From Paracoccaceae bacterium (GTDB taxonomy: Bacteria; Pseudomonadota; Alphaproteobacteria; Rhodobacterales; Rhodobacteraceae), in NCBI GenBank assembly GCA_003605175.1, contig QWDA01000001.1, positions 558,001-622,000 of the forward strand: a stretch of 64,000 nt of DNA, given 5' to 3'. The notes beneath the pieces were generated by a model. That model made no database searches. It saw only the letters and a list, made by a program, of their open reading frames with translations, and was not told where the DNA came from. Position numbers and translations under genes: made by a program. This document shows, piece after piece, positions 47,344 to 62,816 of the stretch (the stretch's first letter is position 1; every line of letters starts with the position of its first letter).

Positions 47344-49011
47344 TCAGAACAGGCCTTCGATCTGGCCTTCGGCGTTGAGTCTGATGGCTTCCGCCGACGG
47401 CTTCCGCGGCAGGCCGGGCATGGTCATGATCTCACCGCAGATTGCCACCACGAAGCCGGCGCCGGCCGAAAGCCGCACTTCGCGGACCGGCAGGCTGTGG
47501 CCCGTCGGCGCGCCGCGCCGGTTCGGGTCGGTGGTGAAGCTGTACTGGGTCTTGGCCATGCAGACCGGAAGATTGCCGTAGCCCTGATCTTCCCATTCCT
47601 TGAGCTGGCTGCGGATCTTCTGGTCCGCAAGCACCTCGTCGGCGCGGTAGATGCCCTTGGCGATGGTCTCGATCTTCTGGAACAGCGACATGTCGTCTTC
47701 GTAGAGCGGCGCGAACTGCGCAGTGCCGGCTTCGCAGAGTTCGACCACCTTCTTCGCGGTCTCCTTGATGCCTTCGCCGCCATTGGCCCAATGCGTGTTG
47801 AGGATCGCCTCGACGCCCATCGTGGCGCAGTAGTCCTTGATCGCCTGCACTTCGGCATCGGTGTCGGTGACGAAGTGGTTGATGCCCACGACGAGCGGCA
47901 CGCCGAACTTCTTGAGGTTCTCGATGTGCCGGCCGAGGTTGGCGCAACCCTTCTGGACCGCTTCGACGTTTTCCGCGCCGAGATCGTCCTTCTTCACGCC
48001 GCCGTTCATCTTCATCGCGCGCACCGTGGCGACCAGCACCACCGCGTCGGGCTTGAGGCCCGCCTTGCGGCACTTGATGTCGAAGAACTTCTCGGCGCCC
48101 AGGTCGGCCCCGAAGCCGGCCTCGGTCACCACGTAGTCGGCGAGCTTCAGGGCGGTGGTGGTGGCGATCACGGTGTTGCAGCCATGGGCGATGTTCGCGA
48201 ACGGGCCGCCATGGACGAAGGCGGGGTTGTTCTCGAGCGTCTGCACCAGGTTCGGCTGCATCGCGTCCTTGAGGAGCACCGTCATCGCGCCGTCGGCCTT
48301 GATGTCACGGGCATAGACCGGGGTCCGGTCGCGGCGATAGGCGACGATCATGTCGCCGAGGCGCTTCTCGAGGTCCTTCAGGTCGGTGGCGAGGCAGAGG
48401 ATCGCCATGACCTCGGAGGCCACGGTGATGTCGAAGCCGGTCTCGCGCGGGAAGCCGTTGGCGACGCCGCCGAGGTTGCAGACGATCGAGCGCAGCGCCC
48501 GGTCGTTCATGTCCAGGACCCGGCGCCAGGCGACGCGGCGGATGTCGATCTCGCACTCGTTGCCCCAGTAGATGTGGTTGTCGATCATCGCGGACAAGAG
48601 GTTGTGGGCCGAGGTGATCGCGTGGAAGTCGCCGGTGAAGTGGAGGTTCATCTCCTCCATCGGCACGACCTGGGCATAGCCGCCGCCCGCGGCGCCGCCC
48701 TTCATGCCGAAGTTCGGGCCGAGCGAGGCCTCGCGGATGCAGATCATCGCCTTCTTGCCGATCGCGTTCAGGCCGTCGCCGAGGCCGACCGTCGTGGTCG
48801 TCTTGCCTTCGCCGGCGGGCGTCGGGTTGATCGCGGTGACCAGGATCAGCTTGCCGTTCGGCCGGTCTTTCAGGGAGGCGATGAAATCCTGGCCGATCTT
48901 CGCCTTGTCGTGGCCGTAGGGCAGGAGTGCTTCGGTCGGGATGCCAAGCTTCTCACCGATCTCCTGGATCGGCTTCTTGTTGGCTTTGCGGGCGATTTCA
49001 ATGTCGGACAT
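47344..49011 (-). CDS. fhs: formate-tetrahydrofolate ligase
   Basis: A 555-residue FTHFS. The nucleotide-binding motif is [14 protein letters not shown] near 63-76, with [23 protein letters not shown] and [13 protein letters not shown] also present. It makes 10-formyl-THF from formate, ATP and THF. In this cluster it would feed formate from oxalate into one-carbon assimilation. ATG 49011 is 16 bases after the formyltransferase-type gene; GGAAA lies upstream. Confidence 0.97.
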
Positions 49012-49027
49012 TCGGGTTTCCTGAGAT

Positions 49028-49945
49028 TTAGAGTCCAAATTCGTCGCCGGGCTTAAGCCCGACGGAAGATGCCCACTCGGCGGCGGGGATCTTGGCGCCA
49101 CCTTCCGGCTTCACGCGTTTCACGAGTATCCGCCCGCCGACGCACTGGACCTCGAAACCGTCATCGGTGACGGCACGGACGCGCGACGAGATTCCGTCAC
49201 CGGGAACGCGGGTGCAATCGAAGATGCCGAGTTCGGCGCCGTTGAACCGGGTCCAGGCCCCGGGCGAGGGATTCGTGCCGCGGATCAGGTCGTGGACCTG
49301 GCCGACGGGCTTGTTCCAGTCGATCCCGGAATGCCGCCTGGTGCAGCGCCGCTCGTAGGTCGCGTCGTCCTCGTTCGCGACGATGCGGGGCGGGTTTCCG
49401 CCGCGGAAGTGGTCGACCACTTCGAGCACGCTGTCGACGGCCACCGGGTAGATCTTCTTGAAATAGAGGTCGATCACCGTGTCGTCGGGGCCGATCTCGC
49501 ATTCCCATTGCATCAGGCTGTCGCCCTCGTCGAGCCCGTCGGACGGGTAGAACCAGGAGAAGCCGGACTTCTTCGAGCCCATGATGATCGGCCAGTTCAC
49601 CGCGGAGGGACCGCGGTGCAGCGGCAGGAGCGACGGGTGGAAGCAGATCGATCCGTGCGTGGGCGTGTCGCGGGCGGCTTCGGGGACGAAGACGTTGACG
49701 AAGGCCATCACCATCAGGTCGGCCTTGAAGCCGGCCAGGGTCTCGAGTGTCGCCGGGTCGTCGAAATTCGCCGGCTGCTCGACGGGGAGCCCCTTTTCGA
49801 GGGCGTATTCCTTGATCGGGTCAACCGGCTTGCCGTCCCGGTCGGGCTCGCAATAGACGGCCACGACTTCATCGGTTCCGGTGTCCAGAAGCTTTGCAAG
49901 CACATCCTTACCGAAGGCTTGCTGCCCCATCACGATCAAACGCAT
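49028..49945 (-). CDS. stand-alone formyltransferase/10-formyl-THF hydrolase, ALDH1L1 N-terminal type
   Basis: A 305-residue protein with the formyl-transfer fold: [19 protein letters not shown] (catalytic His and folate loop), the Asp in [12 protein letters not shown] and a C-terminal FMT-type domain. [14 protein letters not shown] at the start and [15 protein letters not shown] agree better with the hydrolase half of eukaryotic 10-formyl-THF dehydrogenase than with Met-tRNA formyltransferase. No ACT domain, so it is not PurU. It may hydrolyse 10-formyl-THF to THF and formate, or transfer a formyl group between THF and another acceptor. GGGAGGAATG precedes the start. It heads the fhs-usp unit. 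Confidence 0.8.
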
Positions 49946-50061: not shown

Positions 50062-51336
50062 TTACTCTGCTGCAAGCGTATTCGGCTCGCCGACCGCGCC
50101 CGACTTCACGACCCGGTCGAGATCTTCTCCGGAATAGCCCAGGACCCGTTCGAGGATCTCCAGGGTGTGCTCGCCCAGAAGCGGTGAACGGGTCACTTCC
50201 ACAGGTGAGTCCGACAGCTTGATCGGGCAGCCGACGGATACGTACTTGCCGCGCTTCGGATGATCGACATCGACGATGGTACCGGTCGCCCGGAGGCCGT
50301 CGTCTTCCATGATTTCCTTGGTCGACAGGATCGGGCCGACCGGGATGTCGAGCGGGTTGCAGATGTCCATGACCTCGAACTTGGTCTTGGTCATGGTCCA
50401 TTCCTCGATCCGGCCGAAGATCTCGTTCAGCTTGTCGAGCCGCTCGGGCGGGGTCGCGTAGCCCGGCTTGGTCTTCCACTCGGGCTCGCCGATCACGTCG
50501 CACACCTTCTCCCACGCCGCGGCCTGGGTGATGAAGTAGGTGTAGGCGTTCGGATCGGTCTCCCAGCCCTTGCACTTGAGGATCCGGCCCGGCTGGCCGC
50601 CGCCCGAGTCGTTGCCCGCGCGCGGTGTCGCATCGCCGAACGGGATGCCTTCGCCGAACTGCGAATATTCCTTCAGGGGCCCCGCGGCGAGGCGCTGCTG
50701 GTCGCGCAGCTTCACCCGGCAGAGGTTGATGACCCCGTCCTGCATCGGCGCGAGCACCTTCTGGCCGCGGCCGGATTTCTCCCGCTGGAAGAGCGCGGTG
50801 ACGATCCCGAGGGCGAGGTGCAGGCCGGTGCCCGAGTCGCCGATCTGCGCGCCGGTCACCAGCGGCGGGCCGTCGAGGAAGCCGGTGGTCGAAGCCGCGC
50901 CGCCGGCGCATTGGGCGACGTTCTCGTAGACCTTGCAGTCCTCGTACTTGCCCGGGCCGAAGCCCTTGACCGAGGCCATGATCATCCGGGGGTTAAGTTC
51001 CTGGATCTTCTCCCAGCCGAACCCCATGCGGTCAAGCGCGCCCGGCGCGAAGTTCTCGACCATCACGTCGCACTCCTTGATGAGGCGCGTGAGCACTTCC
51101 TTGCCGGTCTCGTTCTTCGAGTTGAGCTCGATCGAGCGCTTGTTGTGATTCAGCATCGTGAAATAGAGGCTGTCCGCCCCGGGCACGTCCACGAGCTGCT
51201 TGCGCGTCGCGTCGCCCACGCCCGGACGTTCCACCTTGATCACGTCGGCGCCAAACCAGGCGAGGAGCTGCGTGCAGGTCGGTCCCGACTGGACATGGGT
51301 GAAGTCGAGGATCTTGACGCCTTCAAGAGCTTTCAT
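50062..51336 (-). CDS. frc: formyl-CoA:oxalate CoA-transferase
   Basis: A 424-residue class III CoA-transferase: [27 protein letters not shown] (two parts) binds CoA, Asp167 in AQIGDSGTG is the catalytic aspartate that carries acyl and CoA intermediates, and SGGGQPGR provides the glycine loop of Frc. It moves CoA from formyl-CoA to oxalate, giving oxalyl-CoA and formate. 16 bases after oxc, so co-transcribed with its partner. Confidence 0.96.
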
Positions 51337-51352: not shown

Positions 51353-53125
51353 TCAGATTTTCTTTGCCTGCGGGTAGCGCGCCTGCGCCACGACCGAGGA
51401 TGGGTTCAGATTGCCGATATTGCCGCTTTCCCTGCCGGCGTCCTCGGCGATGACCGCGTTGATCAGCGTGGGCTTGCGGCTCGCGAAGGCGTCCTTGACG
51501 GCCTGGCGCAGCGCGTCCGGGTTGTCGACGGTCACGCCTTCGCCGCCGAAGGCCTGCATCATCAGGTCGTAGCGCGACCCCTTGACAAAGACGGTGGTCG
51601 CCGGGTCTTCGCCGCCCGACCAGTTCTCGCCGTCGCCGCGATAGATGCCGTTGTTGTTCATGATGACGATGCAGACCGGCAGGTTGTAGCGGCAGACCGT
51701 CTCGATCTCCATGCCGCAGAACCCGAAGGCGCTGTCGCCCTCGACCGCGAGGACCTGGTTGCCGGTCTCGACCGCGGCGGCGACCGCCGAGCCCATGCCG
51801 ACCCCCATGATCCCCCAGGTGCCGACGTCGAGCCGCTTGCGGGGCTTGTGGATGTCGACGATCGAGCGGCACTGGTCGAGCGCGTTGGCGCCCTCGTTCA
51901 CCAGCACCACATCGGGGTTTTCGGCGATCAGGTCCTTCAGCACGCCGAGCGAGCCCTGGTAGTCCATCGGCGAGTTGTTGTTCTTCAGGCGCGGCGCCAT
52001 TTTCGCGACATTGGTCTCGACCTTGCTGCGGACCGCGCCGGTCCAGTCCTCGGATGGTTTCTTCCAGTCGGACCCGATGGCGTCGAGCAGCGCGGTGGCG
52101 CAGCTTTCGATATCGCCGATCAGCGGGGCCGAGATCTTCTGGTTCGAATCCATCTCGGTCGGCTCGATGTCGATCTGCACGAATTTCTTGGCGCCTTTCT
52201 CGCCCCAGGCCTTGCCCTGGCCATGGGAGAGGAGCCAGTTCAGCCGGGCGCCGATCAGGAACACGCAATCGCTTTCCTTCAGCACCAGGGAGCGGGCGGC
52301 GGAGGCGCATTGCGGATGGGTGTCGGGCAGGAGGCCCTTGGCCATCGACATCGGCAGGTAGGGGAAGCCGAGGGTCTCGACCAGTTCCCGGACCTTGTCG
52401 TCGCACTGGGCATAGGCTGCGCCCTTGCCGATGATGATGAGCGGCTTTTCGGCCGATTTCATCACCTCGACCGCGCGCGAGATCGCTTCGGGCGAGGGGA
52501 CGGATTTCGGGTTGGGATCAACCACTTCGATGAGCGATTTCGCGCCCTCCGCGGCATCCATGACCTGGCCCAGCAGCGCGCCGGGCACGTCGAGATAGAC
52601 CCCTCCCGGACGGCCGGTCAGCGCCGCGCGGATCGCGCGGGCGACGCCCAGGCCGATATCCTCGGCATGGAGGATCCGGTAGGCGGCCTTGGCATGGGGA
52701 CGGGCGATGGCGAGCTGGTCCATCTCCTCGTAGTCGCCGCGCTGGAGATCGACGATCTCGCGTTCGGACGAGCCGGAAATCAGGATCATCGGCCAGCAAT
52801 TGGTGGTGGCATGGGCCAGCGCGGTCAGGCCGTTCAGGAAGCCCGGCGCGGAGACCGTCATGCAGATACCCGGCTTCTTTGTCAGGAAACCGGCGGCGGC
52901 GGCGGCATAACCGGCATGCTGCTCGTGGCGGAACGACAGAACCCGCATCCCCTGCGCCTGCGCGTAGCGGCCGAGATCGGTGATCGGGATGCCCGGGACG
53001 TTGTAGATCGTCTCGACCCCGTTCAGCTTGAGGGCGTCGATCAGGAGGTGAAACCCGTCCGTCAGGGTCTCCGGTGCGGTTTCTGCCCGCGCCTTCAGAT
53101 CGTCATCCGCTTCGATCACTCCCAT
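51353..53125 (-). CDS. oxc: oxalyl-CoA decarboxylase
   Basis: A 590-residue thiamine-diphosphate enzyme. The activating glutamate is in [14 protein letters not shown] near residue 56, the TPP/Mg motif is [15 protein letters not shown]...NNNG near 475-505, and [17 protein letters not shown] precedes it. It decarboxylates oxalyl-CoA to formyl-CoA and CO2. AGGAGG is an ideal ribosome site before ATG 53125. The gene is 50 bases after gntR. Confidence 0.97.
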
Positions 53126-53175: not shown

Positions 53176-53874
53176 TCAGTTCGCCGCGGCCGCGCTCAAC
53201 CCGTCGAGGCGGGTCCAGAGGCGCCGCACATGTGCGTGCAGTTTCATCGTGTGCTCGCGGACCAGCCGCGAGGCGAGATCGGCATCGCGCGCCTCGAGCG
53301 CCTCGATGATCGCCATGTGATCGACGACCGAGCGCACGGCACGGCCATCTTCGGTCAGCGCCCGGCGCCGGACCGCGTACATGTGCACGAAGAGCCCCTC
53401 GGCAAGCCGCTGCAGCATTGGCGAGCCGGACATCTCGAGGATCATCTGGTGGAACTTGAGGTTCGCCTCGGAATACTCGTGCAGATCGGCGCGGGCGGCG
53501 CTTTCGGAATGAGACATCGCGTGCTTGCGGAGCGCTTCGAGCTGGCCCTCGCTCGCCGAGATCGCGGCGAGACTTGCGGCCATGCTCTCCAGCGCGGCCC
53601 AGGCAACGATCAGGTCGAGCACTTCCTCAAGCGTCATCCGCCGCACGAAGACGCCGCGGCGCGGACGGATCTCGACGAAGCCTTCCTGTTCCAGGCGGGC
53701 CAGGGCCTCGCGCAGAGGAGTTCGGGAGATTCCGAGTTGCTCGGCGAGCGAACGTTCATCCAGTCTCAGGTCGGTTGCCTGATCGTAGATGTTCATCCCT
53801 ACGATGGCCTCGCGAAGCATGTCGTAGACATGGTCCTTCAGCGTGAAGCTCGTATCGATCGGTCGCAGTTTCAA
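53176..53874 (-). CDS. GntR-family (FCD) transcriptional regulator
   Basis: A 232-residue regulator: N-terminal winged helix LDERSLAEQLGISRTPLREALARL and RRGVFVRR, then an all-helical FCD domain whose His residues (KFHQM, VDHMAIIE, REHTMKLHAHV) can bind metal and a small carboxylate. It starts at TTG 53874 with GGGGGAGGA nine bases ahead. It leads the oxc-frc operon, and a TGGTATACCA palindrome lies 42 bases upstream; similar ones precede the formate dehydrogenase and ligase genes. Probably the oxalate/formate regulator. Confidence 0.9.
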   Translation of the reverse strand: MKLRPIDTSFTLKDHVYDMLREAIVGMNIYDQATDLRLDERSLAEQLGISRTPLREALARLEQEGFVEIRPRRGVFVRRMTLEEVLDLIVAWAALESMAASLAAISASEGQLEALRKHAMSHSESAARADLHEYSEANLKFHQMILEMSGSPMLQRLAEGLFVHMYAVRRRALTEDGRAVRSVVDHMAIIEALEARDADLASRLVREHTMKLHAHVRRLWTRLDGLSAAAAN

Positions 53875-53915
53875 ACCGCGTGGTCCTCCCCCTGGGGCAT
53901 CGTAATGCCACCGAC

Positions 53916-53925
53916 TGGTATACCA
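53916..53925. promoter_or_regulatory. palindrome TGGTATACCA upstream of gntR-oxc-frc
   Basis: A perfect 10-bp palindrome 42 bases before the gntR start. The half TGGTAT fits operators of FCD-type GntR proteins and reappears at 58625-58641 and 59686-59695, suggesting autoregulation and a shared regulon. Confidence 0.6.
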
Positions 53926-54054
53926 TAGACCAGGGGGTACGGATTCGCCAAGCGTTAATCTCGGGTGGAAATGACATTTCCGGCGCGAAATCCGCGCATG
54001 CCCGGGCAGACGGCGAGCAGCCGCCTGCCGCGCGTCGGCAAGGGGTTCTGATAG

Positions 54055-54107: not shown

Positions 54108-56906
54108 TTACTCGGCGGCGACCGCCGTGCCGTCGCCCGCGGCTTCGACGCGGACGGCGGAGAACTTGAACTCCGGGATCTTGCCGAACGGGTCGAGCGC
54201 CGCGTTCGTCAGGATATTCGCGGCCGCCTCGACATAGGCGAAGGGCAGGAACACGTTATCCTCGGCGACCGCCCGGTCGGCCCGCGCCATGACCGTGACG
54301 CTGCCGCGCCGGGTGGTCAGCCGGATCATGCCGCCGGGTTCGACCCCCAGGCGCCGGAGCGTCTTGGGGTTGAGCGAGCAGTTCGCTTCCGGCTCGACGG
54401 CGTCGAGCACCGTGGCGCGGCGGGTCATCGAGCCGGTATGCCAGTGCTCCAACTGCCGGCCGGTGATCAGGATCATCGGGTATTCGGCATCCGGGCTCTC
54501 GTCGGGCGCGATGACATTCGCGGGCGTAAAGCGCGCGCGTCCGTCGGGGCGCGGGAAGCCGTCGCCGAACACGATCGGCTGGCCCGGATCCTCGGGCGAA
54601 AGCGACGGGTAGGTGACCGCCGCGCCCTCGAGCCGCTCCCAGGTGATGTTGTCGAGCGACTTCATGTTGCGCTTCATCTCGGCGAAGACCTCGCGCGGAT
54701 GGGTGTATTCCCAGGCGAGGCCCAGCCGCTTGGCGAGTTCCACCTCGATCCACCAGTCTTCCTTGGCCTCGCCGGGCGGCGGCACCGCGGGCCGGCCCAT
54801 CTGCACCTGCCGGTTGGTGTTGGTCACCGTCCCGGTCTTTTCGGCAAAGGCCGAGGAGGGCAGGATCACGTCGGCATAGTTCGCGGTCTCGGTCAGGAAG
54901 ATGTCCTGCACCACCAGATGGTCGAGCTTGGCGAGCGCGTCACGGGCATGGTCGACATCCGGGTCGGACATCGCCGGGTTTTCGCCCAGGATATACATGC
55001 CCTTGATCTCGCCGTCATGGATCGCGTCCATGATCTCGACCACGGTCAGGCCCTTCTGGTTCGAGAAATCCTCCGAGCCCCAGACCTCGGTGAAGGCCGA
55101 GCGCACGCCGTCATCGGTGACCGGCTGATAGTCGGGCAGGAACATCGGGATCAGGCCGGCATCGGAAGCGCCCTGCACGTTGTTCTGGCCGCGGAGCGGG
55201 TGCAGGCCCGAGCCCGGGCGGCCGACCTGGCCGGCCATCAGGGCGAGCGAGATCAGGCAGCGCGAGTTGTCGGTGCCGTGGATGTGCTGGCTGATGCCCA
55301 TGCCCCAGAAGATCATCCCGGCCTTCGCGGTGGCAAAGGTGCGGGCGACGTCGCGCAGGACTTCCGGTTCGATGCCGCAGATCTTCGACATCTTCTCGGG
55401 CGTGAAATCGGCGAGATGCGCCTTCATTCCCGCCCAGTTCTCGGTGAAGGCCTGGATGTACTGCTCGTCGTAGAGCCCTTCCTCGACGATCACGTTCATG
55501 ATCGCGTTCAGCATCGACACGTCGGCGCCGGGGCGGAACTGGAGCATGTGCGAGGCGAAACGCTTGAGGCCCACGCCGCGCGGATCCATCACGATCAGCT
55601 TGCCGCCGCGCTTGGCGAACTGCTTGAAATAGGTCGCGGCGACGGGATGGTTCTCGATCGGGTTGCAGCCGATGACGATGGCGACGTCGGCATTCTCGAT
55701 CTCGTTGAAGGTCGCGGTCACCGCGCCCGAGCCGACATTCTCCATCAGCGCGGCCACGGACGAGGCGTGGCACAGGCGGGTGCAGTGGTCGACGTTGTTG
55801 TGGCCGAAGCCCTGCCGGATCAGCTTCTGGAAAAGATAGGCTTCCTCGTTCGAGCACTTGGCCGAGCCGAAGCCCGCCACACGGGTGCCCTTGTCGGCGC
55901 GGAGATCGGCGAGGCCCCTGGCGGCGAAGTCGAGAGCCTCATCCCAGCTGGCTTCGCGGAAATGGGTGTAGACGTTCGACGGATCGACGTTCAGCCCTTT
56001 CTCCGGCGCATCCTCGCGGCGGATCAGCGGCTTCGTCAGCCGGTGCGGGTGAGCGATGTAGTCGAAGCCGAAGCGGCCCTTGACGCAGAGCCGGTTCTCG
56101 TTCGCCGGCCCGTCGATGCCCTCGACATACTTGATCTTGCCGTCCTTGATCTTCAGCGAGATCTGGCAGCCGACGCCGCAATAGGGGCAGACGCTCTCTA
56201 CCTCGCGGTCGTAATCCTTCGAGTCGCCCACCTGGGCCTCGTCGACCACGCTCGCTTCCATCAGTGCGCCGGTGGGGCAGGCCTGCACGCATTCGCCGCA
56301 GGCGACGCAGGTGGATTGGCCCATCGGGTCGGACATGTCGAAGACCGGGAAGCTGTCATGCCCCCGCCCGGCCATGCCGATCACGTCATTGACCTGCACT
56401 TCGCGGCAGGCGCGGACGCAGAGATTGCACTGGATGCAGGCGTCGAGATTGACGCGCATCGCCACGTGGCTGTCGTCGAGCAGCGGCACGCGGGCCCTGT
56501 CCATCGCCGGGAAGCGGCTCTCGGAAACGCCCTGCGCCTCGGCCATGTCCCAGAAATGCGAGGACTTGTCGTGCGCTTCCGCGCGCTTCGGCTGGTCGGC
56601 CACCAGCATCTCGACCACCATCTTGCGCGCCTTGGCCTCGCGGTCGCCCTCGGTGGTGACCTTCATGCCATCCGTGACCGGGCGGATGCAGGACGCCACC
56701 AGCGTCCGCTCGCCCTCCACCGCGACCATGCAGGCCCGGCAGTTCCCGTCCGAGCGGTAGCCCGGCGCATCCTTGTGGCAGAGATGCGGGATCGTGGTGC
56801 CTTCGCGCTTCGCCACCTGCCAGATGGTTTCGCCCTCGAAGGCCTGCACATCCTTCCCGTCGAGCGAGAAGGTGATGGTCTTGATCTGTCCGCCATCGGC
56901 CGCCAT
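54108..56906 (-). CDS. fdsA: NAD-dependent formate dehydrogenase, catalytic alpha subunit
   Basis: A 932-residue molybdenum/tungsten bis-MGD enzyme. Cys43, 56, 59 and 73 hold an N-terminal [2Fe-2S]; CIQCNLCVRAC (157-167) and CVACGECVQAC (200-210) hold [4Fe-4S]; CPYCGVGC (240-247) plus Cys274 bind the cluster near the active site. Cys379-His380 in TRLCHASSV are the metal ligand and neighbour (Cys386/His387 in R. capsulatus FdsA). No selenocysteine. It oxidises formate to CO2 in the cytoplasm and passes electrons to the NADH subunit. Separated from the upstream subunit gene by one base. fdsC and fdsD do not follow. Confidence 0.97.
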   Translation of the reverse strand: MAADGGQIKTITFSLDGKDVQAFEGETIWQVAKREGTTIPHLCHKDAPGYRSDGNCRACMVAVEGERTLVASCIRPVTDGMKVTTEGDREAKARKMVVEMLVADQPKRAEAHDKSSHFWDMAEAQGVSESRFPAMDRARVPLLDDSHVAMRVNLDACIQCNLCVRACREVQVNDVIGMAGRGHDSFPVFDMSDPMGQSTCVACGECVQACPTGALMEASVVDEAQVGDSKDYDREVESVCPYCGVGCQISLKIKDGKIKYVEGIDGPANENRLCVKGRFGFDYIAHPHRLTKPLIRREDAPEKGLNVDPSNVYTHFREASWDEALDFAARGLADLRADKGTRVAGFGSAKCSNEEAYLFQKLIRQGFGHNNVDHCTRLCHASSVAALMENVGSGAVTATFNEIENADVAIVIGCNPIENHPVAATYFKQFAKRGGKLIVMDPRGVGLKRFASHMLQFRPGADVSMLNAIMNVIVEEGLYDEQYIQAFTENWAGMKAHLADFTPEKMSKICGIEPEVLRDVARTFATAKAGMIFWGMGISQHIHGTDNSRCLISLALMAGQVGRPGSGLHPLRGQNNVQGASDAGLIPMFLPDYQPVTDDGVRSAFTEVWGSEDFSNQKGLTVVEIMDAIHDGEIKGMYILGENPAMSDPDVDHARDALAKLDHLVVQDIFLTETANYADVILPSSAFAEKTGTVTNTNRQVQMGRPAVPPPGEAKEDWWIEVELAKRLGLAWEYTHPREVFAEMKRNMKSLDNITWERLEGAAVTYPSLSPEDPGQPIVFGDGFPRPDGRARFTPANVIAPDESPDAEYPMILITGRQLEHWHTGSMTRRATVLDAVEPEANCSLNPKTLRRLGVEPGGMIRLTTRRGSVTVMARADRAVAEDNVFLPFAYVEAAANILTNAALDPFGKIPEFKFSAVRVEAAGDGTAVAAE

Positions 56907-56907
56907 G

Positions 56908-58608
56908 TCAGATCTCCTCCGGGAAATGTTTCATTGTCAGCCGGATCGGGTTCGGCGCCGCCTGTCCGAGGCCGCAGATCGAGGCATCGGCCATCGTGGT
57001 GCACAGCTCTTCCAGGAGCCCCTGATCCCAGCGATCCGCTTCCATCAGCTTGACCGCCTTCTCGCAGCCCACCCGGCAAGGGGTGCACTGGCCGCAGCTT
57101 TCGTCCTCGAAGAACCGCAGCATGTTGAGCGCGGCCTGTTTTGCGCTGTCCTTGTCGGACAGCACAACCACCGCCGCCGAACCGATGAAGGTCCCGTGCG
57201 GTTGCAGCGTGTCGAAATCCAGCGGGATGTCGTCCATCGAGGCGGGCAGGAGGCCCGAGGAGGGGCCGCCGGGCTGGTAGGCCTTGAAGGCATGGCCCTC
57301 GGCCATGCCGCCGCAGGCCTCGATGATGTCGAGGATCGTCGAGCCGGCAGGCAGCAGGTAGACCCCGGGATTGGCCACGCGGCCCGATACCGAGTAGCTG
57401 CGCAGGCCCTTGCGGCCGTTCTTTTCCGTCGCGTTCAGGCATTCAGGCCCTTCGCGGCAGATCTTCGCGACCCAGTAGAGCGTCTCGACATTGTGGACGA
57501 GGGTGGGGCGGTCGAAGATGCCGACCTGCGCCACGAAGGGCGGGCGGTGGCGGGGCAGGCCGCGCTTGCCCTCGATCGATTCGATCATCGCGCTTTCTTC
57601 GCCGCAGATATAGGCGCCCGCGCCGCGGCGGAGGTCGATATAGCCGGGTTCCACGATCCCGGCCTTTTCCAGCGCGGCGATCTCGGTGCGGAGGATCTTC
57701 AGCACGGCGGGGTATTCGTCGCGCATGTAGATGAAGGCCTTCTCGGCCTCGACGGCCCAGGCGGCGATCAGCATGCCTTCGAGGAAGAGATGCGGCTGGC
57801 GTTCGAGGTAGAAGCGGTCCTTGAAGGTGCCGGGCTCGCCCTCGTCGCCGTTCACCGCCAGGTAGCGCGGGCCTTCGTTGGCGCGCACGAAGCCCCATTT
57901 CCGGCCCGAGGGGAAGCCCGCGCCGCCGAGGCCGCGAAGGCCGGAAGCCAGGATCGTTTCCTGCACCTCTTCCCAGTTGCCGCCGGTGCGGAGCGCCTTC
58001 AGCGCCTCGTAGCCGCCGGCGCCGACATAGGCGTCGAGGGCCTCATAGGCGGGGATGTGCGGATGGGTATCGTCCGAAGCGATGGCGGCCTGCACCTTTT
58101 CGGGCGTCGCGTTGTCGATGTGGTTGTGTCCGATCTCGAGAACCGGCGCGGTGTCGCAGCGGCCCATGCAGGGCGCGCGCAGCACGCGGACCTCGCTCGG
58201 GTCGAGCCCGTCCTCCAGCGCCGCCTTGAGCTGCTGCGCGCCGGCGAGTTCGCAGGACAGCGAATCGCAGACCCGGATCGTCAGGGCAGGGGGCGGGGTC
58301 TCGCCTTCCTTGACCAGGTCGAAATGGGCATAGAACGTGGCGACTTCCCAGATCTCCGCCTGCGCGAGGCGCATTTCCTCGGCCAGCGCACGCATATGCG
58401 CCGCCGACAGGTGGCCGTACTTGTCCTGGATGAGATGCAGGAATTCGATCAGAAGATCGCGCCGGCGGGGTCTGTCGCCAAGGAGCGCGCGTACCTCTTC
58501 CCAGGCCTGATCCTCGACCTGGCGGCCCTTCGGCGTCTTGCGGCCCCGGCCCTTGCCGGACTTCCAGACGCCCTTTCCCTGATCCAGCGGTGCCATTTCG
58601 CCTCCCAT
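56908..58608 (-). CDS. fdsB: formate dehydrogenase diaphorase subunit, FdsG-FdsB fusion
   Basis: A 566-residue protein joining a NuoE-like and a NuoF-like part. Cys114, 119, 147 and 151 (VCDSLSC, CMGRC) hold a [2Fe-2S] cluster. From about residue 185, GLRGLGGAGFPSGRKW and NGDEGEPGTFKDR bind FMN and NADH and ESCGQCTPCRVGC holds a [4Fe-4S]. In Rhodobacter and Cupriavidus these are separate FdsG and FdsB; a fused beta subunit is known from Methylorubrum FDH1. The N-terminal 30 residues are basic and poorly conserved. ATG 58608 and 58596 both have G-rich ribosome sites. Confidence 0.94.
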   Translation of the reverse strand: MGGEMAPLDQGKGVWKSGKGRGRKTPKGRQVEDQAWEEVRALLGDRPRRRDLLIEFLHLIQDKYGHLSAAHMRALAEEMRLAQAEIWEVATFYAHFDLVKEGETPPPALTIRVCDSLSCELAGAQQLKAALEDGLDPSEVRVLRAPCMGRCDTAPVLEIGHNHIDNATPEKVQAAIASDDTHPHIPAYEALDAYVGAGGYEALKALRTGGNWEEVQETILASGLRGLGGAGFPSGRKWGFVRANEGPRYLAVNGDEGEPGTFKDRFYLERQPHLFLEGMLIAAWAVEAEKAFIYMRDEYPAVLKILRTEIAALEKAGIVEPGYIDLRRGAGAYICGEESAMIESIEGKRGLPRHRPPFVAQVGIFDRPTLVHNVETLYWVAKICREGPECLNATEKNGRKGLRSYSVSGRVANPGVYLLPAGSTILDIIEACGGMAEGHAFKAYQPGGPSSGLLPASMDDIPLDFDTLQPHGTFIGSAAVVVLSDKDSAKQAALNMLRFFEDESCGQCTPCRVGCEKAVKLMEADRWDQGLLEELCTTMADASICGLGQAAPNPIRLTMKHFPEEI

Positions 58609-58624
58609 GTATACTCCCGCACAC

Positions 58625-58641
58625 TGGTATTAAGAATACCA
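58625..58641. promoter_or_regulatory. palindrome TGGTATT-AAG-AATACCA upstream of the formate dehydrogenase operon
   Basis: Seven-base perfect arms, 17 bases before the start of the fused subunit. The outer TGGTAT/ATACCA halves match the site upstream of gntR, though with wider spacing. Confidence 0.55.
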
Positions 58642-58674: not shown

Positions 58675-59568
58675 TCAACGCTTATCGAACGCCAGCACCG
58701 CACAGCGCCGCAATGCCTCGACGGCGGGCAGCGGCGTGCCTCGGTTCTGTGTCACCAAAACCATCGAATGTTCAAGTGTCGGTTTCACCAGAGGCAGGGC
58801 AATCGTGCCCGGCGGCTGGCCGAGATCGCTGACCAGGACCTCGGGCAGGATCGTCGCGCCAAGGCCGTGGGCGGCGGTCAGCATGGCGCTGCCCAGCTCG
58901 TCGGTTTCGGCCACGAGTTCGGGGTTGCAGCCGATCTCGCGGAACACCCGGTCGATGATCTGGCGGTTCTGCATGCCGGGCTCCAGAAGGCAGAGCGGCA
59001 GCGCGGCGGCTTCCTCCCAGGTCGCCACGCCGCTTTGTCGCGGCGCGATCGCCAGGGGCGCGAGCAGGACGTAGTGCTCGTCATAAAGGCGGTTGATCAC
59101 CTGGGTCTCGCCGCGTGCCGCATCGCTGTAGGTCAGGCCCGCATCGAGACTGCCATCCTCCAGCCGCTTGCCGATCTCCTGCGCGGTGGTGGTCTCGACC
59201 CGTACCCGTACCCGCGGATGGTGGTTGTGCAGATCGCTTGCCAGCCGTGCGGCAGCGGCGACGGCGGTTGGGACGGTGCCGAGCCGCAGCGGGCCGGAGA
59301 TATCGGATTTCGCCGCGCGGATGATTTCCTCGAGCGAGCGCACCTCCTCGAGGATCTCGCGGGCATGGCGCACGATCGCCTCGCCTTCCTCGGTCAGGCC
59401 CTGGAAACGGTTGCCGCGCAAGACGATCGGCGTGTCGAGCCGTTCCTCCAGCTTGCGGATGCGCATCGAGAACGCCGGCTGCGAAACGCCGCACTCGTCG
59501 GCGGCCCGCGCGAAATGCCGGTGCCGGGCGAGGGCCGAGAGGAATTTCAGGTCGCGCAGCTCAAGCAT
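58675..59568 (-). CDS. LysR-family regulator (FdsR-like position)
   Basis: A 297-residue LysR protein: HTH LKFLSALARHRHFARAADECGVSQPAFSMRI (two parts) and a periplasmic-binding-like sensor domain with GTIALPLV near the end. Located immediately upstream of the formate dehydrogenase genes on the same strand, the place where fdsR is found in other bacteria; FdsR responds to formate. It is divergent from the CoA-ligase genes, so it may act on both sides. Confidence 0.9.
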   Translation of the reverse strand: MLELRDLKFLSALARHRHFARAADECGVSQPAFSMRIRKLEERLDTPIVLRGNRFQGLTEEGEAIVRHAREILEEVRSLEEIIRAAKSDISGPLRLGTVPTAVAAAARLASDLHNHHPRVRVRVETTTAQEIGKRLEDGSLDAGLTYSDAARGETQVINRLYDEHYVLLAPLAIAPRQSGVATWEEAAALPLCLLEPGMQNRQIIDRVFREIGCNPELVAETDELGSAMLTAAHGLGATILPEVLVSDLGQPPGTIALPLVKPTLEHSMVLVTQNRGTPLPAVEALRRCAVLAFDKR

Positions 59569-59685
59569 GGGTCCGTGGTCCGGCTGGGGCGTCTCTCTTA
59601 TCGCCCGCTGCGGCGTGGGGTGCAATTCCGCGCTGCCGGAACGGTCAACCCGCCCGAAGGTTGCGTTGACGAACCGGGCAAATTC

Positions 59686-59695
59686 TGGCATACCA
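59686..59695. promoter_or_regulatory. TGGCATACCA, near-palindrome upstream of the CoA-ligase operon
   Basis: Differs from the perfect TGGTATACCA by one base and is followed by a further half, GATACCA (59696-59702). It lies 39 bases before the ligase beta start, in the divergent lysR/ligase promoter region. Confidence 0.5.
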
Positions 59696-59734
59696 GATAC
59701 CAAACGGCGCAGGTCCGGACCAGGGGGGAAGCGG

Positions 59735-60898
59735 ATGCTCTTGTCGGAGTACAAGTCGAAGGAACTCGTGGCCCAGTACGGGATGCCGATTCCCGAAGGC
59801 CGGATCGCCGCCACGCCGGAAGAGGCGGAGGCCCGCTGCCGTGAGATCAGGGCCGAGAAATACGTGGTCAAGGCGCAGATCGCGGCCGGCGGGCGGGGTC
59901 TTGGCGGTGGCATCCGCTTTGCCGCGACGCCGTCTTCGGTGGCCGAGGAGGCGCGGCGGCTTCTGGGCTCGAAGCTGGTGACGGCACAGACCGGTCCGGA
60001 CGGCGAGGAAATCGCCTCGGTCTATGTCGAGGCGGCGATGACCCTGAAGGAAAGTTTCTATATCGGTTTCGCGCTCGACCCGCGTTCGGGCGCGCCGCTC
60101 CTCCTCGCCTCCGACCAGGGCGGTGTGGAGTTCGAGGAGCGCGCACGGATGGACCCGGAGGCCGTCCGCACGCTGGCGCTGGACGGGGCGGGCGACGCCG
60201 ACAGGGCGGCGCTCGCCGAGTTCCTCGCCGGCATCGGCATCGCCGACGTCGCGGCGGTCGATGCGGTGATGGCCGCGCGCCGCGCCTTCGTCGAGACGGA
60301 CATGCTGCTCCTCGAGATCAACCCCTTCGCCCGGACCGACAAGGGGGACTGGCTCGCCATCGACGCCAAGATCTCGCTCGACAAGAACGCGGCCTTCCGC
60401 CACCCGGAATACGAGACCCTCGCCTCGGACGACGAACTGGTGGGCATCGAGCGCGAGGCACAGAAGAGCGACATCAACCTCGTGAAGCTCGACGGCGATA
60501 TCGGCGTCGTGGTGAACGGCGCGGGGCTCGGCCTTGCCACCAACGACATGATCGTCGATGCCGGCGGCGAACCGGCGAACTTCATGGACCTCCGCACCAC
60601 GGCGACCAGTTTCGACATCGCCAAGGGGGTTGACCTGATCCTCAAGGATCCGAATGTGAAAGTGGTGCTCCTGAACGTTCATGGCGGCGGCATGACGGTC
60701 TGCGACACGGTGGCCGAGGGCGTGGCCTTCGCCTATGCCCGGGCTCAGAAGAAGCCGCCCGTGGTGGCGCGGCTGGCCGGACAGAACGCCGATTGGGGGC
60801 ACCGGATCCTGAAGGACCGGAAAGTGCCGGTCGAGACTTACGGCACGATGGGCGAGGCGGTGAAGCGCGCGGTCGAGCTTGCCAGGGGAGGGCGCTGA
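59735..60898 (+). CDS. ADP-forming acyl-CoA ligase beta subunit, SucC-like
   Basis: A 387-residue ATP-grasp/CoA-ligase protein. MLLSEYKSKELVAQYGMPIPEG and VVKAQIAAGGRGLGGG give the ATP-grasp part; LLEINPFA binds Mg-ATP; NGAGLGLATNDMI and NVHGGGM near the end are as in SucC and malate-CoA ligase. The main sucCD genes normally sit with the 2-oxoglutarate dehydrogenase genes; this copy stands in an oxalate/formate cluster and is divergent from lysR, so a non-succinate substrate is likely. GGGGGGAA precedes ATG 59735. Confidence 0.88.
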   Translation: MLLSEYKSKELVAQYGMPIPEGRIAATPEEAEARCREIRAEKYVVKAQIAAGGRGLGGGIRFAATPSSVAEEARRLLGSKLVTAQTGPDGEEIASVYVEAAMTLKESFYIGFALDPRSGAPLLLASDQGGVEFEERARMDPEAVRTLALDGAGDADRAALAEFLAGIGIADVAAVDAVMAARRAFVETDMLLLEINPFARTDKGDWLAIDAKISLDKNAAFRHPEYETLASDDELVGIEREAQKSDINLVKLDGDIGVVVNGAGLGLATNDMIVDAGGEPANFMDLRTTATSFDIAKGVDLILKDPNVKVVLLNVHGGGMTVCDTVAEGVAFAYARAQKKPPVVARLAGQNADWGHRILKDRKVPVETYGTMGEAVKRAVELARGGR

Positions 60899-60899
60899 G

Positions 60900-61808
60900 A
60901 TGGCGATCTACGTGGACAGCGGCACTAGGGTGCTCGTGCAGGGCATGACCGGCCGCGCCGGAACCTTCTACACCGACCAGGCGATGCGCTATGCGCCGAC
61001 CTATGTGGCCGGCGTCCGGCCCGGCAAGGGCGGGTCGAAACATCTGGGCCTGCCGGTCTTCCACGGTGTCGCCGAGGCGAAGGCCGAGACCGGCGCCACC
61101 GCGAGCCTCGTCGTGGCGCCGGCCGACAAGGCCGCGGCCGCCATGATCGAGGCGATCGAGGCCGAACTCGACGTTGTGGTCTGCGTGACCGAACGGGTGC
61201 CGCAGCACGACATGAGCCGGGTGAAGGCGGCGCTCGCCGGATCGAAGACCGCGCTTATCGGGCCGAATTCGCAGGGCATCCTGACGCCGGGCCAGTGCAA
61301 GATCGGTGTCATGCCCACGCGCGACGCGAAACCCGGCCCGGTGGGCATCGCCTCGCGTTCGGCCTCGCTCACTTCCGAGGTGCTGGCGCGCTGCTCGGCG
61401 GCGGATCTCGGCCAGTCAACCACCGTCGGCGTCGGCGGCGATACGCTCCATGGCATCGGCTTCGTCGATTGCCTGAAACGGTTCCGCGAGGATGACGAGA
61501 CCAGGGTCGTCGTCCTCGTGGGCGAGATCGGCGGCACCGAGGAGGAGGACGCGGCCGAATACCTCTCCTCGCTCGACTACGGCAAGCCCGTGGTGGCGCT
61601 GGTCGTGGGCCGCCATGCGCCCGTGGGGCGCCGGATGGGGCATGCCGGCACCCTCTCGATCTTCGGTCTGCCGAGTGCCAAGGAGAAGATCGCCTGCCTG
61701 ACCCGGTCAGGGGTGCAGATCGCCCAGAGCCCGGACGAGGTCGCCCCGGCGATCCTTTCCGCGCTGGCCGCGCAGAATGCGGTTCAATCCGAGTCCGTTG
61801 CGGGGTAG
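60900..61808 (+). CDS. ADP-forming acyl-CoA ligase alpha subunit, SucD-like
   Basis: A 302-residue SucD relative. VQGMTGRAGTFY binds CoA and His248 in RRMGHAG is the phosphorylated histidine, so it should be active. Substrate-side motifs depart from SucD: GPNSQG instead of GPNCPG, RSASLTSE instead of RSGTLTYE, and GGDTLHGIGF instead of the usual GGDP..GT.F. These suggest another carboxylic acid, such as oxalate or formate. One base separates its ATG from the beta subunit stop. Confidence 0.88.
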   Translation: MAIYVDSGTRVLVQGMTGRAGTFYTDQAMRYAPTYVAGVRPGKGGSKHLGLPVFHGVAEAKAETGATASLVVAPADKAAAAMIEAIEAELDVVVCVTERVPQHDMSRVKAALAGSKTALIGPNSQGILTPGQCKIGVMPTRDAKPGPVGIASRSASLTSEVLARCSAADLGQSTTVGVGGDTLHGIGFVDCLKRFREDDETRVVVLVGEIGGTEEEDAAEYLSSLDYGKPVVALVVGRHAPVGRRMGHAGTLSIFGLPSAKEKIACLTRSGVQIAQSPDEVAPAILSALAAQNAVQSESVAG

Positions 61809-61838: not shown

Positions 61839-62816
61839 ATGACTTCCATGCGGATCGTGGACTGCGCCGAGCCGGGCGGCCCGGAAGTGCTGGTGCCGGG
61901 CGAACGGGAGAAGCCGGCACCGGGGCCGGGCGAAGTGCTGATCGCCGTGGCGGCGGCGGGCGTGAACGGCCCCGACCTCGTGCAGCGGCGCGGGCATTAC
62001 CCGCCGCCCGAGGGCGCCTCCGATCTCCTCGGCCTCGAGGTCTCCGGCACCGTGGCCGAGCTGGGCGAGGGCGTGACCGGCTGGGCGGTGGGCGATCAGG
62101 TCTGCGCGCTGACGAATGGCGGCGGATATGCCGAGTTCGTCGCGGTGGACGCGGGCCATGTGCTGCCGGTCCCCGAAGGCGTCTCGCTCGAGGATGCGGG
62201 CGGGCTTTGCGAAACGTATTTCACGGTCTGGAGCAACGTGTTCCACGGTCATGAGGTGCCCGAGGGCGCGCGGTTCCTCGTTCATGGCGGCGCGGGCGGC
62301 ATCGGCTCGACCGCGGTGCAGCTCGGGGCGGCGCTGGGGCTCGAGGTGCTGACGACGGTGGGGGCTCCGGATGAGGCGGAGTTTGCGGTGGAGCTGGGCG
62401 CGGCGCGGGCGATCAACTTCCGGCGGGAGGATTTCGTCGAGGTGGTGCGCGAGGCCGGCGGCGCCGACATCATTCTCGACATCATCGGCGGCGACTACAT
62501 CGCGCGGAACTTCAAGGCGGCCCGCCACGACGCGCGGATCATCCAGCTGGCCTTCAACGCGGGCAGCAAGGTCGAGATCAACCTCATGCCCATCATGTTG
62601 AAAAGGCTGAACTATACCGGATCGACCCTGCGCTCGCGCGCGCCCGCCTTCAAGGCGGCGGTGGCGGCGGCGCTGCGCAAGAACGTCTGGCCGCTCTTCG
62701 CCGCCGGGCGTCTCCGGCCGGTGACGCACAAGATCCTGTCGCTCGACCAGGCGGCCGAGGCGCATGCGCTGATGGAGGCAGCGACGCATCGCGGGAAGAT
62801 CCTGCTGAAGCCCTGA
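61839..62816 (+). CDS. NAD(P)H:quinone oxidoreductase, PIG3 family
   Basis: A 325-residue zinc-free medium-chain dehydrogenase: AAGVNGPDLVQRRGHYPPP, GLEVSGTV, and the NADPH motif VHGGAGGIGSTAVQL near 148. The PIG3 type reduces quinones or detoxifies carbonyls. It lies 30 bases after the ligase alpha gene with GGGAG before the ATG, so it may be transcribed with it, though it has no obvious role in oxalate use. Confidence 0.9.
   Translation: MTSMRIVDCAEPGGPEVLVPGEREKPAPGPGEVLIAVAAAGVNGPDLVQRRGHYPPPEGASDLLGLEVSGTVAELGEGVTGWAVGDQVCALTNGGGYAEFVAVDAGHVLPVPEGVSLEDAGGLCETYFTVWSNVFHGHEVPEGARFLVHGGAGGIGSTAVQLGAALGLEVLTTVGAPDEAEFAVELGAARAINFRREDFVEVVREAGGADIILDIIGGDYIARNFKAARHDARIIQLAFNAGSKVEINLMPIMLKRLNYTGSTLRSRAPAFKAAVAAALRKNVWPLFAAGRLRPVTHKILSLDQAAEAHALMEAATHRGKILLKP

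What the first reader, a model, noticed from the sequence alone, without database searches (positions are those of the whole stretch)
59735..61808. SucCD-like ligase with altered substrate loops: candidate oxalate- or formate-CoA ligase
The alpha subunit keeps the phospho-histidine but changes GPNCPG to GPNSQG, RSGTLTYE to RSASLTSE and the GGDP..GT.F motif to GGDTLHGIGF. The gene pair is divergent from the regulator of formate dehydrogenase and carries the island's operator. Frc needs formyl-CoA to start the cycle; a ligase making oxalyl-CoA or formyl-CoA from free CoA would prime it. Known oxalyl-CoA synthetases are AMP-forming, so an ADP-forming one would be new as far as I know.
Basis: partly seen in the sequence, partly recalled or inferred. 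Interest (0 to 1): 0.68.

Follow-up and report, generated by a model that had tools for sequence, protein, structure and literature searches.

The report
Likely ADP-forming oxalate-CoA ligase pair
Beside this bacterium's oxalate-degradation genes sits a two-subunit enzyme related to the citric-acid-cycle succinyl-CoA synthetase but with a rebuilt substrate site; it most likely uses ATP to attach coenzyme A to oxalate and so starts or feeds oxalate breakdown, an ATP-to-ADP route for this step that I did not find described.

Summary
Window 59735-60898 (beta) and 60900-61808 (alpha) encode an intact CoA-ligase pair of the succinyl-CoA synthetase fold. The genome has its citric-acid-cycle SucCD and malate-CoA ligase elsewhere. 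The pair belongs to an alphaproteobacterial clade (support 100/100) that keeps the phospho-histidine and catalytic residues but changes substrate-site loops uniformly: in 72 of 72 rows beta GGG is RTT, beta has an inserted Gly, and alpha Gly99 is Arg. The clade travels with oxalate genes: frc in 43 of 46 genomes examined (the 3 misses are contig breaks), oxc in 39 of 46, and it shares an operator with gntR-oxc-frc. In 5 of 69 loci a PanE2-like gene (oxalyl-CoA reductase family) directly follows alpha. Best reading: oxalate + ATP + CoA -> oxalyl-CoA + ADP + Pi, about 0.53. Rivals: formate-CoA ligase, since Frc would turn formyl-CoA into oxalyl-CoA; and a supplier of succinyl-CoA, since five other oxalate islands carry an ordinary SucCD instead. 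No substrate has been assayed. Novelty: new variant of a known kind.

The parts
59735..60898 (+). beta (SucC-like) subunit, ATP-grasp + CoA-ligase domain, 387 aa
   Evidence: Translation; Pfam PF08442 168 bits and PF00549 60 bits; NCBIfam NF001913 378.3 vs cut-off 370, TIGR01016 334.8 vs 375.55, malate-CoA ligase NF010647 325.2 vs 604; model pLDDT 87.9 matches succinyl-CoA synthetase beta chains
60900..61808 (+). alpha (SucD-like) subunit with phospho-histidine, 302 aa
   Evidence: Translation; PF02629, PF00549, PF13607; NF004230 333.5 vs 336, TIGR01019 324.7 vs 353.2; model pLDDT 89.1, under 50 only in the histidine loop 239-255 among stretches of 3 or more residues, matches succinyl-CoA synthetase alpha chains
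59684..59702 (.). operator TCTGGCATACCAGATACCA upstream of beta
   Evidence: such an element upstream of 45 of 63 beta genes in relatives
53915..53933 (.). operator CTGGTATACCATAGACCAG upstream of gntR-oxc-frc
58625..58641 (.). operator TGGTATTAAGAATACCA between lysR and formate dehydrogenase beta
53176..53874 (-). GntR/FCD regulator, presumed reader of the operator
   Evidence: PF00392 and PF07729; binding is inferred
51353..53125 (-). oxc, oxalyl-CoA decarboxylase
   Evidence: TIGR03254 949 bits vs 739.4
50062..51336 (-). frc, formyl-CoA:oxalate CoA-transferase
   Evidence: TIGR03253 701 bits vs 504.2
54108..56906 (-). formate dehydrogenase alpha
   Evidence: TIGR01591 742 bits vs 666
56908..58608 (-). 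formate dehydrogenase beta (NuoE/NuoF-type fusion)
   Evidence: PF01512, PF01257, PF10589
58675..59568 (-). LysR-family regulator divergent from the ligase
   Evidence: PF00126, PF03466
49028..49945 (-). Fmt-like formyltransferase, below the fmt cut-off
   Evidence: TIGR00460 116.4 vs 201.5
47344..49101 (-). fhs, formate-tetrahydrofolate ligase
   Evidence: NF010030 944 bits vs 652
61839..62816 (+). PIG3-type quinone oxidoreductase, common downstream neighbour
   Evidence: TIGR02824 427 bits vs 296.8; present in 22 of 69 relatives' loci

Best explanation
The pair is an ADP-forming oxalate-CoA ligase: oxalate + ATP + CoA = oxalyl-CoA + ADP + Pi. Inferred mechanism, as in succinyl-CoA synthetase: ATP phosphorylates the alpha histidine (His248 of the window protein), the phosphoryl group moves to an oxalate carboxylate, and CoA attacks oxalyl-phosphate. 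Arginines introduced by the clade (alpha Arg99, beta Arg287) and the remodelled beta loops would hold the second, adjacent carboxylate. In this organism the enzyme would prime and top up the Frc/Oxc cycle when CoA thioester is lost. In Hyphomicrobiales it would also supply oxalyl-CoA to a PanE2-type reductase, which releases CoA and regenerates no thioester, so an ATP-driven ligase is needed in proportion to flux. Shown: fold, conserved catalytic residues, clade, signature, co-occurrence, shared operator. Inferred: substrate, direction, roles of the residues.
For: Catalytic residues kept: alpha His247, Glu209; beta Lys46, Glu99, Glu197, Asp213, Asn264 (E. coli numbering with Met), each 72 of 72. 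Loop signature: beta RTT 72/72 at each of three positions, inserted Gly 72/72, alpha Arg99 72/72, Ala155 and Ser159 72/72. Clade apart from citric-acid-cycle SucCD and MtkAB, support 100/100; the own genome encodes both elsewhere. In 248 genomes of the family the pair is in 12, oxc in 28, both in 11 (Fisher p 5.5e-11, not corrected for kinship); frc in 33, including all 12. In 46 genomes with the pair, at least four of them also in the family set: oxc in 39, frc in 43; the 3 frc misses have oxc on 3.5-3.7 kb contigs cut off on the frc side. Of the 7 without oxc, 6 have another TPP enzyme by frc or in the pair's locus and 1 has an oxc fragment at a contig end. Operator: 1.48 sites per kb upstream of pathway genes vs 0.024 elsewhere. 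PanE2-like gene by the pair in 16 of 69 loci. One plasmid holds oxlT, frc, the pair, PanE2-like, gcl, hyi and tartronate-semialdehyde reductase together.
Against: No assay exists. frc is nearly always present, so a formate-CoA ligase would give the same net result. 17 of the 28 family genomes with oxc lack the pair at the cut-off used. None of the 17 Rhodobacterales genomes in the 46-genome set has the PanE2-like gene at E<=1e-90, so there only a priming role is proposed. Oxalate islands of Azospirillum (2), Skermanella (1) and Cupriavidus (2) carry instead a SucCD with the ordinary TEGIP/GPNCPG/GGG signature next to oxc-frc or by the PanE2-like gene, and no window-type pair in the stretch read; some islands carry both kinds and an Acd-type ligase. 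NCBIfam's succinate-CoA ligase beta model just accepts the beta chain (378.3 vs 370). The PanE2-like genes were not compared directly with PanE2 of Methylobacterium. No ligand docking or complex model was made.
Confidence: 0.53

Rival explanations
1. ADP-forming formate-CoA ligase: formate + ATP + CoA gives formyl-CoA, which Frc exchanges with oxalate to give oxalyl-CoA.
For: frc in 43 of 46 genomes with the pair and in 12 of 12 in the family survey; formate dehydrogenase genes beside the pair in 26 of 69 loci; shared operator with gntR-oxc-frc.
Against: Operon-like placement with the PanE2-like gene in 5 of 69 loci points to oxalyl-CoA as the product; two uniform new arginines and a beta histidine (70 of 72) suit a dianion better than formate (inference); formyl-CoA hydrolysed faster than oxalyl-CoA (half-lives 1.9 h vs 29 h in quenched reaction mixtures, PMC3720670, passage), a poor primer to store.
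Confidence: 0.17
2. A succinyl-CoA or malyl-CoA synthetase in substrate terms, supplying succinyl-CoA as CoA donor for oxalate activation or malyl-CoA for a serine-cycle-like route.
For: The beta chain passes NF001913; ordinary-signature SucCD pairs sit in oxalate islands of Azospirillum, Skermanella and Cupriavidus, so supplying succinyl-CoA may be a usual job there; PMC12188714 (passage) states that succinyl-CoA from sucAB/sucCD can replace formyl-CoA as donor.
Against: Own genome has separate citric-acid-cycle SucCD and MtkAB (MtkA 701.2 bits vs cut-off 604); the loops GGG and NIF-GGI, whose diagnostic positions are kept in 19 of 19 SucCD rows except one residue in one row, are replaced in the clade; several islands carry both an ordinary SucCD and the window-type pair, which suggests different jobs; a clade of the pair with MtkAB is rejected, p-AU 2.5e-6, in a test that left out three basal rows.
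Confidence: 0.17
3. Same enzyme run backwards: oxalyl-CoA or formyl-CoA + ADP + Pi gives the acid + CoA + ATP, conserving energy when glyoxylate is oxidised through a PanE2-type enzyme.
For: SCS-type reactions are reversible (recalled); in Cupriavidus necator the PanE2 homologue ApbA2 was placed in a glyoxylate-to-oxalyl-CoA-to-formate route (PMC7486775, passages).
Against: Oxalate uptake genes (oxlT in 4 of 69 loci, TctABC-like by eye in 25 of 69) and glyoxylate-consuming gcl/hyi/reductase genes share some islands, which suggests oxalate use; the same Cupriavidus paper found slower growth on oxalate without apbA2 (10 h vs 6.5 h doubling), i.e. the reducing direction on oxalate.
Confidence: 0.08
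4. Ligase for another small acid linked to the pathway (for example glycolate, oxamate or tartronate).
For: The substrate is not fixed by sequence; four basal relatives have RP in place of RTT, hinting at different substrates.
Against: frc, oxc and the shared operator do not point to these acids.
Confidence: 0.05

Closest known systems
Succinyl-CoA synthetase (SucCD, SCS)
   Same: Fold, two-subunit make-up, ATP-grasp beta, CoA-binding alpha, phospho-histidine and its two glutamates; ordinary-signature copies also occur in other oxalate islands
   Different: Substrate loops: alpha TER, GPNSQG, RSA[ST]LTSE; beta RTT and NxHGGGM; separate clade
Malate-CoA ligase MtkAB
   Same: Same superfamily; a paralogue with a narrow job
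   Different: The two MtkAB rows keep GGG and a loop without the insertion, NIFAGI; separate gene pair in this genome with mcl, hpr and glyA; the window beta scores 325.2 vs cut-off 604 on the MtkA model
AMP-forming oxalyl-CoA synthetase (AAE3 / Pcs60; named in titles and abstract starts listed)
   Same: Proposed product oxalyl-CoA
   Different: Unrelated protein family (adenylate-forming, recalled); no AMP-binding domain in the Pfam hits here
Acetyl-CoA:oxalate CoA-transferase YfdE/UctC (PMC3720670, passages)
   Same: Proposed priming role for the Frc/Oxc cycle
   Different: CoA-transferase using acetyl-CoA, no ATP
Acd-type NDP-forming acyl-CoA synthetases and citryl-CoA synthetase / ATP-citrate lyase
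   Same: Distant sequence and fold relatives
   Different: Fused or rearranged domains (recalled), low identity

Membership tests
Succinyl-CoA synthetase superfamily (ADP-forming CoA ligases with phospho-histidine) | ATP-grasp beta subunit plus CoA-binding alpha subunit | tested here: met
   Pfam; folds
Succinyl-CoA synthetase superfamily (ADP-forming CoA ligases with phospho-histidine) | Phospho-histidine and supporting glutamates conserved | tested here: met
   72 of 72 rows for each of alpha His247, alpha Glu209 and beta Glu197
Succinate-CoA ligase (SucCD) proper | Scores over the NCBIfam cut-offs | tested here: inconclusive
   beta NF001913 378.3 vs 370 passes; TIGR01016 334.8 vs 375.55, alpha NF004230 333.5 vs 336 and TIGR01019 324.7 vs 353.2 fail
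Succinate-CoA ligase (SucCD) proper | Substrate-loop residues GGG (beta 290-292) and NIF-GGI | tested here: not met
   RTT 72/72 and an inserted Gly 72/72; F319 is His in 70/72. That these loops contact succinate is recalled
Succinate-CoA ligase (SucCD) proper | Activity with succinate | not testable with these tools
   needs an assay
Malate-CoA ligase (MtkAB) | NF010647 at or above cut-off | tested here: not met
   325.2 vs 604; own true MtkA 701.2
Malate-CoA ligase (MtkAB) | Groups with known MtkAB | tested here: not met
   Separate clade, support 100/100; p-AU 2.5e-6 for the joined clade, in a test that left out three basal rows; whether MtkAB is sister to the clade or to SucCD is unresolved
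AMP-forming oxalate-CoA ligase (AAE3/Pcs60) | AMP-binding (ANL) domain | tested here: not met
   Absent from the Pfam hits
ADP-forming oxalate-CoA ligase (proposed) | Genome co-occurrence and co-regulation with frc/oxc | tested here: met
   not specific to this pair,
ADP-forming oxalate-CoA ligase (proposed) | Oxalate-dependent ADP and oxalyl-CoA formation | not testable with these tools
   needs purified protein

The most novel reading that the evidence does not exclude
An unrecognised alphaproteobacterial subfamily of succinyl-CoA synthetase is a true ADP-forming oxalate-CoA ligase. It makes oxalyl-CoA directly from oxalate and ATP, primes Frc/Oxc, and with a PanE2-type reductase forms an oxalate-to-glyoxylate assimilation route that needs no formyl-CoA.
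Probability: 0.46. Interest if true: 0.72.

Novelty: new variant of a known kind. Interest (0 to 1): 0.6.

Why it matters
How the Frc/Oxc cycle obtains its first CoA thioester is not settled. One answer in print is a CoA-transferase that borrows from acetyl-CoA (YfdE, PMC3720670, passages). An ATP-driven oxalate ligase would be a second answer, would account for the energy cost of assimilating oxalate through oxalyl-CoA reductase, and would correct the succinate-CoA ligase label that annotations put on these genes (seen on two plasmids). It could serve oxalate or one-carbon pathway design. The loop signature (TER, GPNSQG, RTT, HGGGM) makes the subfamily easy to recognise and to mutate, and tells it from the ordinary SucCD that some oxalate islands carry.

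Tried and rejected
Malate-CoA ligase: rejected by model score, tree and a true MtkAB in the genome. Citric-acid-cycle SucCD: rejected, since a separate copy exists. The idea that genomes with the pair plus PanE2 but no oxc would exclude formate: dropped, because those genomes have frc and, in 6 of 7, a second TPP enzyme. A first tree paired some alpha rows with the wrong beta; rebuilt. Rows left out: identical rows entered once and short hits dropped; six alpha rows without a beta partner; six loci (L084, L085, L088, L089, L097, L100) that repeat contigs already present. In one search four basal rows (L049, L066, L071, L077) were kept apart; they share alpha Arg99 and beta Arg287 but have RP in place of RTT. 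The paper on PanE2 as oxalyl-CoA reductase (Schneider et al. 2012) is not held; it is known here through the passages of PMC3720670 and PMC7486775. Which loops contact substrate in succinyl-CoA synthetase is recalled and comes from no call. Literature searches without an ADP-forming oxalate- or formate-CoA ligase in what was listed: 0 papers; 20 of 76 listed; 20 of 122; one term also matched unrelated words; 40 of 113; 12 of 14; 3 of 3; 1 of 1; 1 of 1; 8 of 8; only open-licence PubMed Central papers; titles, abstract starts and term counts seen, and passages of PMC7486775, PMC3720670, PMC12927642 and PMC12188714.
Full report
What is there. The finding's coordinates hold two adjacent genes on the + strand: beta 59735-60898 (387 aa) and alpha 60900-61808 (302 aa). 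Pfam gives ATP-grasp_2 and Ligase_CoA for beta, and CoA_binding, Ligase_CoA and Succ_CoA_lig for alpha. AlphaFold2 models (pLDDT 89.1 alpha, 87.9 beta) match succinyl-CoA synthetase chains. NCBIfam scores straddle the succinate-CoA ligase cut-offs: beta NF001913 378.3 vs 370 passes; TIGR01016 334.8 vs 375.55, alpha NF004230 333.5 vs 336 and TIGR01019 324.7 vs 353.2 fail. The malate-CoA ligase model is far off, 325.2 vs 604.

Surroundings. On the - strand lie fhs 47344-49101, an Fmt-like formyltransferase 49028-49945, frc 50062-51336, oxc 51353-53125, a GntR/FCD regulator 53176-53874, formate dehydrogenase 54108-58608 and a LysR regulator 58675-59568 divergent from the pair; a PIG3-type quinone oxidoreductase follows at 61839-62816.

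It is a third paralogue. The genome has three SucC-like genes. The one on contig C29 has SucD near it and matches E. coli SucCD (54% and 70%). The one on C35 matches annotated malate-CoA ligase (82% and 83%) and lies with mcl, hpr and glyA; its beta passes the malate-CoA ligase model at 701.2 vs 604. The window pair matches neither well (beta 36-38%, alpha 42-47%).

Clade. A scan of named genomes with alpha gave the best 80 of 152 confirmed loci; 69 of the 80 hold an alpha closest to the window's. In a tree of 97 concatenated pairs, all 73 rows labelled as this type lie on one side of a branch against 21 SucCD/MtkAB rows (SH-aLRT 100). In a slower tree of 32 rows the 18 of this type have support 100/100, and with three basal rows 100/100; joining the 18 with MtkAB is rejected (p-AU 2.5e-6), though that constraint left out the three basal rows. 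Whether MtkAB is sister to the clade or to SucCD is not resolved.

Signature. Over 72 clade rows and 19 SucCD rows: alpha Gly99->Arg 72/72, Cys124->Ser 71/72, Pro125->Gln 71/72, Gly155->Ala 72/72, Tyr159->Ser 72/72, Thr238->His 62/72; beta Gly290-292->Arg-Thr-Thr 72/72 at each position, Phe319->His 70/72, and an inserted Gly 72/72 (E. coli numbering with Met). Whole motifs: GPNSQG 65/72, RSA[ST]LTSE 68/72, TER 71/72. Catalytic positions do not change: alpha His247 and Glu209, beta Lys46, Glu99, Glu197, Asn199, Asp213 and Asn264, each 72/72. So the chemistry is kept and another part of the site is rebuilt in one consistent way. In the models, helices begin at alpha 155 and beta 292, at or just after changed residues, and the inserted Gly ends the strand before the helix at beta 323. 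That these loops bind the carboxylate substrate in succinyl-CoA synthetase is recalled, not tested.

Link to oxalate: genomes. In 248 genomes of the window's family the pair (E<=1e-90) is in 12, oxc in 28, both in 11 (Fisher p 5.5e-11, not corrected for kinship). frc is in 33, including all 12 with the pair. The 17 genomes with oxc but without the pair show that it is not indispensable. In the genomes of 46 of the 80 loci, chosen by hand, oxc is in 39, a PanE2-like gene in 24 at E<=1e-90 (21 of them at 62% identity or more; none of the 17 Rhodobacterales), and frc in 43 (10 of 10, 33 of 36). At least four of these genomes are also in the family set, so the two surveys overlap. The three frc misses have oxc on contigs of 3.5-3.7 kb that end on the frc side. 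Of the seven without oxc, six carry a different TPP enzyme next to frc or in the pair's locus and one has an oxc fragment at a contig end.

Link to oxalate: neighbourhoods. Within the fetched flanks (up to 10 kb), 59 of 69 loci show frc, oxc, the second TPP enzyme, formate dehydrogenase, a PanE2-like gene or oxlT. Of the ten others, eight start close to a contig end; the other two (L045, L063) are in genomes that have oxc. The PanE2-like gene is near the pair in 16 of 69, and in five (L046, L052, L056, L060, L069; two pairs of these are close kin) it follows alpha by 61-99 bases on the same strand. In four loci (L047, L054, L055, L074; Afipia, Bosea and kin) the pair lies by glyoxylate carboligase, hydroxypyruvate isomerase, tartronate-semialdehyde reductase and the PanE2-like gene. 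A Phyllobacterium plasmid has oxlT, a TPP enzyme, frc, the pair, the PanE2-like gene, gcl and hyi in one island, the pair annotated as sucC and sucD. The PanE2-like genes belong to a subfamily model named 2-dehydropantoate 2-reductase (479.7 vs 223 bits); they were not compared with Methylobacterium PanE2 itself. Counterparts at 58-60% identity lie near frc in Cupriavidus metallidurans and C. campinensis; in C. necator such a gene, apbA2, 51% identical to PanE2 and near frc-oxc, slowed growth on oxalate when deleted (10 h vs 6.5 h doubling) and was taken to be CoA-acylating glyoxylate dehydrogenase, i.e. oxalyl-CoA reductase (PMC7486775, passages). There, deletion of frc-oxc abolished growth on oxalate.

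A result against a simple reading of linkage. Some islands of the window's clade carry both kinds. So oxalate islands attract SucCD-type ligases in general, perhaps to supply succinyl-CoA as CoA donor, and the case for oxalate as substrate of this pair rests on its changed loops and on the PanE2 link more than on location.

Link to oxalate: regulation. TGGYATACCA occurs in the window only before gntR-oxc-frc (53916) and before beta (59686): 3 matches counting both strands of the palindrome, expected 0.03. The spaced form adds 58625 before formate dehydrogenase. In the named relatives such sites lie upstream of 45 of 63 beta genes and 25 of 37 GntR genes, but of only 4 of 27 formate dehydrogenase beta genes; density is 1.48 per kb in upstream stretches of pathway genes and 0.024 per kb elsewhere (94 vs 29 sites). 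Where gntR and beta share one intergenic stretch the site counts for both, but in the 14 loci where a LysR gene is divergent from beta, all 14 have a site before beta. The whole genome has the motif at 11 places (17 matches on two strands; the reversed pattern 4), two of them beside one GntR-type gene by eye, so the motif alone is not specific.

How it most likely works. ATP phosphorylates the alpha histidine; the phosphoryl group passes to oxalate; CoA takes the oxalyl group. The product feeds Oxc. Frc then swaps CoA between formyl-CoA and oxalate, so in Rhodobacterales the ligase need act only to start and top up the cycle; formyl-CoA hydrolysed faster than oxalyl-CoA in quenched mixtures (1.9 h vs 29 h; PMC3720670, passage). 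Where a PanE2-type reductase drains oxalyl-CoA to glyoxylate and free CoA, each turn needs a new activation. Fold, catalytic residues, clade, signature and linkage are shown; substrate and direction are inferred. A formate-CoA ligase together with Frc gives the same net reaction; the operon-like link with the PanE2-like gene and the two new arginines favour oxalate, but do not prove it.

Known or new. The oxalyl-CoA synthetases in the titles and abstract starts listed are of the plant/fungal AAE3/Pcs60 kind. The searches listed no ADP-forming oxalate- or formate-CoA ligase; the library holds open-licence papers only and several lists were cut. [quoted passage not shown] I rate this a new variant of a known kind: a succinyl-CoA synthetase subfamily with a new, probably oxalate, substrate.

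Noticed in passing
L048:741-2486, L049:3049-4791, L053:6117-7973, L107:10492-12246, L111:10637-12382, L113, L114, L115, L133:13368-15119: A TPP enzyme of about 580 aa, 22-25% identical to oxc where measured, takes the place of oxc next to frc. The L107 copy is below the cut-offs of the 25 NCBIfam models shown (closest an acetolactate-synthase-type model, then 2-hydroxyacyl-CoA lyase). It may be a second, non-orthologous oxalyl-CoA decarboxylase or a formyl-CoA carboligase.
   Followed up: partly
window 49028-49945: An Fmt-like formyltransferase (fmt model 116 vs cut-off 201.5) sits between frc and fhs in this island; relatives of it are in 15 of 69 loci. It might move the formyl group between formyl-CoA and tetrahydrofolate.
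   Followed up: no
L107:3774-5890, L006, L035, L063, L074, L086, L087, L091, L095, L133-L137: An ordinary-signature SucCD pair lies in or beside many oxalate islands, in two annotated cases beside ppc, with or without the window-type pair; it may supply succinyl-CoA or malyl-CoA.
   Followed up: partly
L058, L059, L063, L065, L066, L072, L107, L111, L117, L118, L133, L134, L136: An Acd-type NDP-forming acyl-CoA ligase, 67-90% identical to the L107 copy, recurs in oxalate islands by oxlT, frc or the ordinary SucCD; its substrate is unknown and could be oxalate or formate.
   Followed up: no
window 53915-53933, 58625-58641, 59684-59702: Three copies of a GntR/FCD-type operator mark the oxalate regulon; the same palindrome also lies at four places on contig C34 of the same genome, two beside a GntR-type gene and a TRAP-like binding protein by eye.
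   Followed up: partly
L105:5964-6569 and relatives: An isochorismatase-family gene (as annotated) with no NCBIfam match at E<=1e-20 recurs in oxalate islands, 6 of 69 loci.
   Followed up: no
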